This document shows positions 25,767 to 36,205 of a stretch of 64,000 bases of DNA, piece by piece (position 1 is the first letter of the stretch; the number at the start of each line of letters is the position of its first letter). Source of the stretch: Rubrivirga sp. SAORIC476 (GTDB lineage Bacteria > Bacteroidota > Rhodothermia > Rhodothermales > Rubricoccaceae); NCBI RefSeq assembly GCF_002283555.1, contig NZ_MVOI01000015.1, positions 124,001 to 188,000 of the forward strand, read 5' to 3'. Position numbers and translations under genes: made by a program. The notes under the pieces are model-generated. The model made no database searches. It was not told the DNA's origin and was given only the letters and a program-made list of their open reading frames with translations.

Positions 25767-26441
25767 GTGGCCTGGCTCACCGGCGCCTGGGCCGTCGTCG
25801 CCAACGACGCCCGCCTCGAACTCCGTACGCGTGTCGCCCTGAGCGGCCTGGGGCTGTTCGTGGCCGCGTCGCTGATCCTGGTCCGCGTCGCCCTCGGCAA
25901 GGGCGTGCCGACGGTGCCCATCGCGGCGGCGCTGCTGTGGATCGTGGTCGTGTTCGCCGCGGCGGTCGGGCTGGGGCGCGCGTTCGTGGCCGAGGAGGAG
26001 CGCGGCACGTCGCTGCTGCTGCAACTCCACCTGCGGCCGAGCCAGGTGTTCGCGGGCAAGCTGGCCTTCAACGCGGCCTTGATGACGGGCGTCGTGCTGC
26101 TGGCCGGGCTGGGCTTCCGCATCCTCGTCCCCGTGCCGCTGGGCGCGCCGGGTGTCCTGCTGGCCGCGCTGGTGCTCGGCGCCACCGGCATCGCGTCTGC
26201 GACCACCCTGCTGTCGGCGCTGGTCGCGCGGGCGCGAGCCGCGGGCCCGCTCCTGCCCGTGCTGGCGTTCCCGATCCTGGTCCCGATCCTGATCCCGGCC
26301 GTGGCCCTGACCGAGCTCGCCTCGGGGAGCCCGTCGGGCGTGTGGGAGGCCGCCCGCGACGACCTGGTGCTGATCGCGTCCTACGCCGGGCTCCTCACCT
26401 CCGCGTCGTTCCTGCTGTTCGACTTCGTGTGGCGGGACTGA
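25767..26441 (+). CDS. ccmB: Heme exporter permease CcmB
   Basis: 224 residues with about six membrane helices and a GTG start. FVAEEERGTSLLLQLHLRPSQVFAGKLAFN is the CcmB cytoplasmic signature, of which the EEERG and LRP parts are diagnostic. With CcmA and CcmC it forms the ABC-type complex that loads heme onto CcmE. The ccmA ATPase gene is not seen in this window. It heads the run ccmB-ccmC-ccmD-ccmE. Confidence 0.93.
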   Translation: MAWLTGAWAVVANDARLELRTRVALSGLGLFVAASLILVRVALGKGVPTVPIAAALLWIVVVFAAAVGLGRAFVAEEERGTSLLLQLHLRPSQVFAGKLAFNAALMTGVVLLAGLGFRILVPVPLGAPGVLLAALVLGATGIASATTLLSALVARARAAGPLLPVLAFPILVPILIPAVALTELASGSPSGVWEAARDDLVLIASYAGLLTSASFLLFDFVWRD

Positions 26442-26527: not shown

Positions 26528-27292
26528 ATGCACGTTGACGCCCCCACCATGGACCGCGACCTCGCCCTCCCCCGCTACGGCCTCGTGTATCGCCTCTTCG
26601 GCGTCGTCGTGGCCGTGTGGCTGACGGTCGTGCTGGTGCTCGGCGTGATGGGGCCGGTGTCCAACCTGCCGATCCTGGAGCACACCGCGCGCAACCTGTA
26701 TTTCCACGTCCCGATGTGGTTCGTGCTGTACGCGGGCGCCATTGCCGGGGCGTGGCACGCGGGGCGCTACCTCGCGACCGGCCGCACGGTCCACGACGTG
26801 CGCTCCGAGGCGGCCTGGATGGTGTCGACGGTGGCGGGCGTGACGGCGCTGGTCACGGGCGTCGTCTGGGCGCGCTTCACGTGGTACCAGGGCACGGGCC
26901 TCTGGTGGAGCCCGGAGCCGCGCCAGAACATGGTCGCCGTCCAGCTTCTGATCTCGGGCGCCTACTTCATCCTGCGCGGCTCGCTCGACCGGCCCCGGCA
27001 GCGCGCCCGCCTCTCGGCGGTGTATGCGCTCTTCGCGACCGCCTCGATGCCGTTCCTGACCTACGTGCTGCCGCGCCGCATGGCGAGCCTCCACCCCGGC
27101 GCCGAGGGGAACCCGGCGTTCAGCGAGATGGACATCGCGTCCGACATGCGGTGGATCTTCTACTCGGCGGCGGTCGGCTTCCTGCTGCTCGGCTGGTGGC
27201 TCTACACCCAGCGGGTCCGCGCCAAGGTGGCCGCGCTCCGCGTCGAGGCCCTCGCCGCGCCCGCGCCCGCCGCCGCCCCCGTCGTCACATGA
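26528..27292 (+). CDS. ccmC: Cytochrome c maturation protein CcmC
   Basis: 254 residues, six membrane helices. Handles heme for transfer to CcmE in the periplasm. ARNLYFHVPMWFVLY contains the first conserved His. The Trp-rich signature, usually WGxxWxWDxRLT, reads GLWWSPEPRQNM, a notable variant. The second His is in ASLHPGAEGNPAF. A Met at 26549 is an alternative start. The stop overlaps the ccmD start (ATGATG). Confidence 0.92.
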   Translation: MHVDAPTMDRDLALPRYGLVYRLFGVVVAVWLTVVLVLGVMGPVSNLPILEHTARNLYFHVPMWFVLYAGAIAGAWHAGRYLATGRTVHDVRSEAAWMVSTVAGVTALVTGVVWARFTWYQGTGLWWSPEPRQNMVAVQLLISGAYFILRGSLDRPRQRARLSAVYALFATASMPFLTYVLPRRMASLHPGAEGNPAFSEMDIASDMRWIFYSAAVGFLLLGWWLYTQRVRAKVAALRVEALAAPAPAAAPVVT

Positions 27293-27513
27293 TGCTGCTC
27301 CAGGCCGACACCACCATCGCCGTCGTCGACGAGTCCGCCCTGCAGGCGACGACGGCCCAGCCGCAGGGCATCGAGCGGGTCATGCTCGCCGACGACAAGC
27401 TGCCCGTCGTGCTGGCGGTCGTGCTGATCGTCTGGCTGGGCGTGCTCCTGCTGCTCTTCCGCACCGATCGGCGGCTGGCGCGCATCGAGCGCGACCTGGA
27501 CGACCGAGCGTGA
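27289..27513 (+). CDS. ccmD: CcmD-like small membrane protein
   Basis: 74 residues. One membrane helix (about 39-57, LPVVLAVVLIVWLGVLLLLF) is followed by the basic RTDRRLARIERDLDD tail, the usual CcmD form. CcmD helps release holo-CcmE from the CcmABC complex. Its start overlaps the ccmC stop. The N-terminal 35 residues are longer than in proteobacterial CcmD. Confidence 0.85.
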   Translation: MMLLQADTTIAVVDESALQATTAQPQGIERVMLADDKLPVVLAVVLIVWLGVLLLLFRTDRRLARIERDLDDRA

Positions 27514-27589: not shown

Positions 27590-28024
27590 ATGCGCCTCCC
27601 GACCCTCCTCGGCCTCGCCTTCGTCGGCATCTTCGGGTTCTTCGTCGTCAACAGCTTCGGAGACCAGGTCTCCGGCTGGGAGACGTTCGAGGACGCTGCG
27701 GAGAGCGGCCGCAAGGCGCACGTCGTCGGGACGTGGGACCGCGAGGCGCCGTCGACCTACGACCCGTCGCGGAACGTCTTCACGTTCGTGATGACCGACA
27801 CGTCCGGCACGACGCGCCCCGTCATCTACGCCAACCCCAAGCCTGCCAACTTCGAGGACGCCGAGCGCGTGGTCGTGCAGGGCCGGATGACGACGGCCGC
27901 CCAGGGCGACGTGTTCGAGGCCGAGCACATCCTGGTCAAGTGCCCGTCGAAGTACAACGATGGCGCCGAGTTCGAGGCGGCCGAGCCGGGCGTGCCCGTC
28001 ACGCAGACGTCGGCGGGCTCGTGA
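27590..28024 (+). CDS. ccmE: Heme chaperone CcmE, CxxxY type
   Basis: 144 residues: an N-terminal membrane anchor (5-22), then an OB-fold domain. CcmE carries heme covalently to apocytochromes in the periplasm. The heme attachment site reads C118-P-S-K-Y122, so the usual HxxxY His is a Cys, as in the archaeal and Desulfovibrio form of system I. The preceding AEHILVK is conserved. The stop overlaps the next gene's GTG. Confidence 0.93.
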   Translation: MRLPTLLGLAFVGIFGFFVVNSFGDQVSGWETFEDAAESGRKAHVVGTWDREAPSTYDPSRNVFTFVMTDTSGTTRPVIYANPKPANFEDAERVVVQGRMTTAAQGDVFEAEHILVKCPSKYNDGAEFEAAEPGVPVTQTSAGS

Positions 28025-28572
28025 GCCGTCGCCGACGCCGGTCCTCCGCTCCCTCCTCGTCGGGCACGACCGGCCGACGCCGGAGGCGAAAGCGCTGGAC
28101 GCTCCCGAAGATCTCGCGGCGGACGTGGATCGGGCTGGGGGTCGGCCTGCTGGCCCTCGGCGCGGTAGGCGAGTTCATGGGCTCGCGCCCCGAGGCCACC
28201 GAGGTGGACGCGCCCGTGCCGCCCTGCCCGAGCACGCCCAACTGCGCGCGGCTCCGCGTCGCGGTCGGCGCCACGCCCCTGACCGTCACCGAGGCGGTCC
28301 AGAACGTCTTCAACGGCCTCGGCGACTCCGGCCTGGGCGAGCCGACGGCCTACGTCCCAACGCCGGGCGGCGCGCTGGCGTCGTTCTCGGTCGGCCCCTT
28401 CGAGGACGACGTAGTGATCGAGGTGGAGCCTGCGCCCCAGGGCTCGATCCTGTGGGTCCGCAGCGCCTCGCGCTCCGGCCGCTCCGACCTCGGCGTCAAC
28501 GCGCGCCGGGCCGATCGCATCGTGGCCGCGATCGCGTCGTGGCTACCGCCGGAGGCGATGCCGACGGACTGA
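28021..28572 (+). CDS. DUF1499 family membrane-anchored protein
   Basis: 183 residues. A basic Arg/Ser-rich N-terminus (1-30) is followed by one membrane helix (about 38-55) and a DUF1499 domain with PCPSTPNCARL near its start and the signature RSASRSGRSDLGVNARR near its end. Function unknown. The GTG start overlaps the ccmE stop (GTGA), so it is translationally coupled to cytochrome maturation, an unusual neighbour for DUF1499. Confidence 0.85.
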   Translation: MSRRRRRSSAPSSSGTTGRRRRRKRWTLPKISRRTWIGLGVGLLALGAVGEFMGSRPEATEVDAPVPPCPSTPNCARLRVAVGATPLTVTEAVQNVFNGLGDSGLGEPTAYVPTPGGALASFSVGPFEDDVVIEVEPAPQGSILWVRSASRSGRSDLGVNARRADRIVAAIASWLPPEAMPTD

Positions 28573-35847: not shown

Positions 35848-35946
35848 GCGCAGAGCCAGACGACGAAGAACCCCGCAACGATACCCACGGATCGCCTCGC
35901 TGACAGCCCCGCCTAGCCCCGCACCCGGCAATTGTGAAGGCAATCC

Positions 35947-36198
35947 GACACGGCATCGGAGACCTCCGACATGGCATCGGAGACCTCCGACATGGCATCG
36001 GAGACCTCCGACATGGCATCGGAGACCTCCGACATGGCATCGGAGACCTCCGACACGGCATCGGAGACCTCCGACATGGCATCGGAGACACCCGACACGC
36101 CATCGGAGCCGTCCGACACGCCACCAGAGCATTCCGGCCCGGCCCCAGAGACCTCCGACGCGCCCCACGACGCCCCGGACACGCGTCCGGAGCCCGCA
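35947..36198. repeat. Tandem array of a 21-bp unit, 12 copies
   Basis: The unit GACAYGGCATCGGAGACCTC-C is repeated in exact 21-bp register twelve times. Copies 1-6 differ only at one T/C position, copies 7-9 carry a few changes, and copies 10-12 are strongly diverged. It lies between the nucleotidyltransferase stop and the cassette region. Read forwards in one frame it gives Asp-x-x-Ser-Glu-Thr-Ser repeats, but no convincing gene contains it. Confidence 0.9.
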
Positions 36199-36205
36199 AA
36201 CGCGA

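What the first reader, a model, noticed from the sequence alone, without database searches (positions are those of the whole stretch)
27590..28024. CcmE with a Cys heme-attachment site
The site reads C118-P-S-K-Y122 instead of HxxxY. This is the CxxxY variant described for archaea and Desulfovibrio system I*. It suggests a thioether or other non-histidine heme chaperone link here, perhaps with changed CcmC handling as well.
Basis: partly seen in the sequence, partly recalled or inferred. Interest (0 to 1): 0.5.

Follow-up and report, generated by a model that had tools for sequence, protein, structure and literature searches.

The report
Cysteine-type heme chaperone CcmE
The bacterium uses a cysteine instead of the textbook histidine on the small protein that carries heme to cytochromes c; this is a published variant and appears to be the normal form in its phylum, so the finding is real but largely ordinary.

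Summary
CcmE at 27590-28024 (+) carries C118-PSK-Y122, has no other [C/H]xxxY site and is the only ccmE found in the genome. It ends a ccmB-C-D-E cluster. ccmF lies on another contig; no CcmH or ResB reaches threshold.

It is not unusual for its lineage. All 68 genomes read (own plus 67), of 134 in the phylum sample with a CcmE, have CPSKY. The exact motif, with or without CcmH, is in a 2011 review (PMC3601427).

Two additions. Among 77 named loci found through CcmF, blind to the motif, 31 are Cys-type (11 named phyla plus 4 unassigned) and 46 His-type; two trees each need one Cys/His switch, with modest support. Cys-type does not go with loss of CcmH: 30 of 31 such genomes have it, while the window's phylum almost lacks it. 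And CcmC of this order has a four-residue insertion in its tryptophan-rich heme motif, reading WWSPEPRQ in the window; this is not tied to the cysteine.

Verdict: new member of a known kind (System I*).

The parts
27590..28024 (+). ccmE, 144 aa, Cys-type heme chaperone: one N-terminal helix (3-25) and an OB-type beta barrel
   Evidence: PF03100 E 1.7e-13; AlphaFold model mean pLDDT 86.3, pTM 0.66; Foldseek best hit 8ce8_E, CcmE of the CcmABCDE complex, E 1.1e-4, TM-score under 0.5; 2kct also listed, among many other OB folds
27941..27955 (+). C118-P-S-K-Y122, presumed heme attachment site (CxxxY in place of HxxxY)
   Evidence: C118 and Y122 invariant in an alignment of 13 Cys-type CcmE (window and 12 named loci) that I chose
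25767..26441 (+). ccmB, 224 aa
   Evidence: PF03379 E 2e-15
26528..27292 (+). ccmC, 254 aa (start at 26528 or 26549)
   Evidence: PF01578: 29.7 bits, just under the cut-off of 29.9, for the protein from 26549; 30.5 bits, over the cut-off, in the genome search. 90-93% identical in two same-genus and 65-77% in five same-family genomes
26882..26926 (+). CcmC tryptophan-rich (WWD) heme motif, here WYQGTGLWWSPEPRQ: four-residue insertion, third Trp missing, Asp replaced by Glu; flanking His60 and His189 kept
27289..27513 (+). ccmD-like, 74 aa
   Evidence: PF20077 CcmD_alt E 2.3e-7, for the protein read from 27292; start at 27289

Best explanation
This is the heme chaperone of a System I* (Cys-type Ccm) cytochrome c maturation pathway, most likely the inherited form of its phylum. 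CcmC (with CcmABD) loads heme onto C118 of CcmE, Y122 probably ligates the iron, and CcmF takes the heme and attaches it to CXXCH apocytochromes. Shown here by sequence: the site, its conservation, the partner genes ccmB, C, D, F, cytochrome c domains in the genome, and no CcmH, ResB or second ccmE found. Inferred from published Cys-type systems: that heme binds the Cys, and that CcmF works without CcmH. Not decided: whether the Cys-heme bond is a thioether or only iron-thiolate ligation, and which protein is CcmA.
For: PF03100 and OB-type fold. CPSKY in all 68 genomes read of 134 with a CcmE and in 29 of 29 loci of a close-relative search. ccmB, C, D, E together in 16 of 16 order-level loci with up to 4 kb flanks (L045-L060). 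ccmF 831 aa with PF01578 and PF16327; its WWD motif and four His that I recall as functional in E. coli are present in the alignment. Five matches of the cytochrome c family PF13442. No ResB; CcmH only at E 0.18 or worse. Experimental precedents: the Cys of CXXXY is needed for heme binding in Methanosarcina (PMC9084895, passages); a Desulfovibrio Cys-type operon works without CcmH and CcmG (PMC3601427, section 8).
Against: No biochemical evidence from this phylum was seen. ccmA was not identified: 46 ABC matches, none over the ccmA cut-off, and no ABC ATPase in the flanks of 20 loci by motif search. The CcmC heme motif departs from the norm, so heme hand-off may differ from the model. D. vulgaris CcmE is reported to bind heme non-covalently. 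One genome (G062) has a second CcmE-like gene, L073, without the motif.
Confidence: 0.9

Rival explanations
1. Cys-CcmE in this lineage binds heme only by iron-thiolate ligation, not by a covalent vinyl bond, so it is a reversible carrier.
For: D. vulgaris CcmE (2KCT), the best-scoring PDB chain by sequence, is reported to bind ferric heme non-covalently through its Cys (PMC3884852 passage). Stevens 2011 notes that a thioether would not be easily broken.
Against: D. desulfuricans CcmE is reported covalent; Methanosarcina CcmE stains for heme on gels and the C120A mutant does not.
Confidence: 0.25
2. A recent, locus-specific His-to-Cys change, possibly disabling, with another chaperone doing the work.
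For: None found.
Against: CPSKY in all genomes read; the only ccmE found; no ResB found; neighbouring ccm genes open and matched by their families.
Confidence: 0.01
3. Loss of CcmH made, or required, the Cys-type CcmE (the two go together as one system).
For: In the window's genome both hold, and in its phylum sample CcmH matches are rare.
Against: 30 of 31 Cys-type genomes of the named set have a PF03918 match; Stevens 2011 reports CcmH in about a third of Cys-type bacteria.
Confidence: 0.05

Closest known systems
System I* of Desulfovibrio (Allen 2006 and Goddard 2010, not read; as told in Stevens 2011, PMC3601427)
   Same: [quoted passage not shown] CcmD-like gene present; no CcmH found in this genome
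   Different: ccmF on another contig and no ABC ATPase beside ccmB here; CcmC heme motif altered in this order (not compared with Desulfovibrio CcmC). The 2KCT chain cannot be compared past KCP: what follows looks like an expression tag (my reading)
Archaeal Ccm of Methanosarcina acetivorans (CcmABCEF; PMC9084895, passages)
   Same: CXXXY CcmE, no CcmH
   Different: Reported to lack CcmD and to have a split CcmF; here a CcmD-like gene and one 831-aa CcmF are present
Escherichia coli System I (HxxxY CcmE, CcmABCDEFGH)
   Same: Same CcmE family; the two CcmC histidines that flank the WWD motif are kept
   Different: His instead of Cys at the attachment site; CcmH present in E. coli (control); different CcmC WWD motif

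Membership tests
CcmE (PF03100) | Profile match above the curated cut-off | tested here: met
   51.1 bits against 24.6
CcmE (PF03100) | N-terminal membrane helix plus OB-fold barrel | tested here: met
   Predicted model with helix 3-25 and strands 43-116, mean pLDDT 86.3; CcmE chains 8ce8, 1lm0, 1j6q and 2kct in the Foldseek list, beside many other OB folds with similar scores
[quoted passage not shown]
   C118-PSK-Y122, no HxxxY; aligned with the 2KCT Cys
System I* / Cys-type Ccm | CcmH absent (original description; not characteristic according to Stevens 2011) | tested here: met
   No PF03918 match over the cut-off at E up to 10; best E 0.18, partial; genome 97.5% complete
System I* / Cys-type Ccm | CcmG absent | not tested
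   Thioredoxin-like proteins were not searched
System I* / Cys-type Ccm | CcmA, B, C, D, F present | tested here: inconclusive
   B, C, D-like and F found; CcmA not pinned down among 46 ABC matches, none over the ccmA cut-off
System I* / Cys-type Ccm | Heme bound through the CcmE Cys | not testable with these tools
   Needs heme stain and mass spectrometry
Canonical System I (His-type) | HxxxY in CcmE | tested here: not met
System II (CcsBA) | ResB present | tested here: not met
   0 matches of PF05140; the same search rings in 5 of 14 control genomes

The most novel reading that the evidence does not exclude
The Cys/His difference marks one deep division of Ccm systems. Cys-CcmE is the type of many bacterial phyla (and, per the literature, of archaea), and the textbook His is the derived state of one branch (Pseudomonadota, Acidimicrobiia and a few more). 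CcmH loss is a separate event in the window's phylum, and the window's order has in addition remodelled the CcmC heme-binding loop (four-residue insertion, third Trp mostly lost, in two genera Asp to Glu), so heme hand-off there runs through a non-standard CcmC.
Probability: 0.35. Interest if true: 0.45.

Novelty: new member of a known kind. Interest (0 to 1): 0.22.

Why it matters
System I is taught from His-type E. coli. If the Cys type is spread over many phyla, the puzzle of how heme leaves such a stable bond concerns many Ccm systems, not a rarity. The window's phylum offers Cys-type systems that appear to run without a standard CcmH. The order's altered CcmC motif is a natural test of which WWD residues heme transfer needs.

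Tried and rejected
Rejected: 'Cys-type means no CcmH'. A regular expression for LRCxxC[QM] in the loci suggested it. Whole-genome PF03918 searches showed that it had missed divergent or unlinked CcmH; the idea was dropped.

Rejected: 'altered CcmC goes with the Cys'. The 16 Cys-type CcmC of named loci aligned all keep the third Trp (9 with Asp, 7 with Glu) and lack the insertion, and L061 in the same class has WWNWD. Glu in place of Asp was seen only with Cys-type CcmE (0 of 25 His-type), which I did not follow up.

Led nowhere: identifying ccmA. The ATPase in L009 stands without an obvious permease beside it and is a candidate only; 38 of the 46 ABC matches were not looked at. NCBIfam gave CcmE matches far under cut-off (29.2 bits against 126). 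Paper searches for CcmE with Bacteroidetes or Rhodothermus gave 0, 1 and 2 listings, not opened, none on CcmE by title; this says nothing about papers not held, and the Goddard 2010 paper was not held.

Weak points. The CcmE-tree split has support 52 and the CcmF-tree split 92, neither starred. The root is unknown, so direction is inference. Some PF03918 matches cover only part of the profile or may be NrfF-type paralogues.

Full report
Observation. The ORF at 27590-28024 (+) is CcmE (PF03100, 51.1 bits against a cut-off of 24.6) and reads C118-P-S-K-Y122, encoded at 27941-27955. There is no other [C/H]xxxY in the protein and no other ccmE match in the genome. Weak sequence alignments (E 0.035 and 0.34) put C118 on the Cys of D. 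vulgaris CcmE (2KCT) and on the His of 1SR3. The model (mean pLDDT 86.3) has an N-terminal helix and a barrel; the best Foldseek hit is CcmE of 8CE8 (E 1.1e-4, TM-score under 0.5), other CcmE structures (1LM0, 1J6Q, 2KCT) are listed, and so are many unrelated OB folds with similar scores.

Surroundings. ccmB (25767-26441), ccmC (26528-27292), a CcmD_alt protein (27289-27513) and ccmE form a cluster. ccmF is on another contig (locus L089), 831 aa with PF01578 and PF16327. In the 16 loci of the same order fetched with up to 4 kb flanks (L045-L060), ccmB, C, D and E lie together in all 16; in four loci of other groups of the class (L061-L064) ccmF follows ccmE. No CcmH (best E 0.18, partial) and no ResB were found. 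Five matches of the cytochrome c family PF13442 show likely targets. ccmA could not be identified.

Is it unusual? In the phylum sample 134 of 198 genomes have a CcmE. I read 70 loci (68 distinct genes from 67 genomes, since two genomes were fetched twice) plus the window's own: 68 genomes, each with a CPSKY CcmE. The single locus without it is L073, a second, motif-less copy in G062, which also has a CPSKY copy. The set read was the 30 best-scoring loci, the 17 other genomes of the order, and a choice of others that includes the lowest-scoring ones; 66 of the 134 were not read. Of 30 genomes (own and 29 relatives) searched with CcmC, 29 had it, and all 29 loci carry a CPSKY CcmE; the one without is 81% complete. 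PF03918 (CcmH) matched in 6 of 198 genomes at E <= 0.001, one over the cut-off. I looked at two of the six (G116, G188): zinc-ribbon proteins with a CcmH-like stretch, which in a scan of the whole protein do pass the PF03918 cut-off (25.2 and 36.7 bits against 25). So a divergent CcmH-like protein exists in part of the phylum; none was found in the window's genome.

Across phyla. A CcmE could be read for 77 of 80 (three without: L102, L112, L127): 67 in the locus itself, 10 elsewhere in the genome. 31 are Cys-type: Acidobacteriota 7, Gemmatimonadota 4, Fidelibacterota 4, Bacillota 3, Chloroflexota 3, one each of Nitrospinota, Myxococcota, Eiseniibacteriota, Poribacteria, Actinomycetota and one filed as Thermodesulfobacteriota, and 4 unassigned; one of them, L105, has F in place of Y. 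46 are His-type: Pseudomonadota 35, Actinomycetota 8, one each of Gemmatimonadota, Myxococcota and SAR324. On a CcmE tree built without the motif (100 rows: 77 named, 23 of the window's phylum) the label needs one change, split support 52. On a CcmF tree (80 rows, 34 Cys and 46 His; 75 of them named) it again needs one change, support 92. Neither split is starred, and the root is unknown.

CcmH. Of the 79 genomes behind these loci that could be searched, 75 have PF03918: 30 of 31 Cys-type, 42 of 45 His-type, 3 of 3 without a CcmE (L171 not held). So Cys-type CcmE and CcmH absence are separate traits; my earlier regex impression was wrong.

CcmC. The 35 distinct genomes of the order whose CcmC was aligned all have a four-residue insertion in the WWD motif (46 rows with repeats). 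All but one (L189) lack the third Trp. In the window, two same-genus genomes and two genomes of another genus of the family the motif reads WWSPEPRQ, Asp replaced by Glu; three further genomes of the family keep Asp. CcmC was in hand for 41 of the 80 named loci: none has the insertion and all keep the third Trp (25 His-type, all with Asp; 16 Cys-type, 9 with Asp and 7 with Glu). The first axial His is kept in all 91 rows. His60 and His184 flanking the WWD motif are the heme ligands in E. coli according to PMC6204919 (passages).

Literature. The section on System I* in Stevens 2011 (PMC3601427, section read) states that most variant CcmE have CPSKY (25 of 36 genomes), names delta-proteobacteria, chloroflexi and firmicutes, and says CcmH absence is not characteristic. 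That section does not name Bacteroidetes. Gupta 2022 (PMC9084895, passages) shows that the Cys is needed in Methanosarcina and speaks of 'a few bacteria' with the variant. PMC3884852 (passages) reports conflicting binding modes for two Desulfovibrio CcmE. A search of the held library for 'CPSKY' gave two papers, of which only Stevens 2011 is on this subject.

Verdict. A correct observation of a published variant; here it was found in every phylum-mate read. What is added is the motif-blind cross-phylum count with a single switch on two trees, the uncoupling from CcmH, and the altered CcmC motif of the order. The names Rhodothermales and Bacteroidota for the window's order and phylum are my inference; no call gives them.

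Noticed in passing
26882-26926: CcmC heme motif with a four-residue insertion, no third Trp and Asp replaced by Glu (WWSPEPRQ); the insertion is in all 35 order genomes aligned.
   Followed up: partly
28021-28572: A DUF1499 protein directly after ccmE, with a possible GTG start overlapping the ccmE stop; a relative lies beside ccmE in 7 of the 16 order loci L045-L060 (L047, L051, L053, L056, L058, L059, L060).
   Followed up: no
L073 157-504 (+): Second CcmE-like gene in G062 that lacks the CxxxY end.
   Followed up: no
L091 4456-5220 and L092 5042-5953: Zinc-ribbon proteins with CcmH-like stretches bearing CxCGxCG motifs, near an ABC transporter in both loci and, in L091, a ccmF-like gene; possible CcmH substitutes in part of the phylum.
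   Followed up: partly
L009 1453-2532 (-): ABC ATPase of the window's genome without an obvious permease beside it, an unproven candidate for the missing CcmA.
   Followed up: partly
L123, L148, L150: Bacillaceae genomes with a Cys-type ccmE and a ccmF-like gene in one locus.
   Followed up: no
L099, L103, L104, L123, L128, L148, L150: CcmC with Glu in place of the Asp of the WWD motif; among named loci seen only beside a Cys-type CcmE (7 of 16) and not a His-type one (0 of 25).
   Followed up: no
35934-36200: Repeated 'RHGIGDL' type units, open in several frames.
   Followed up: no
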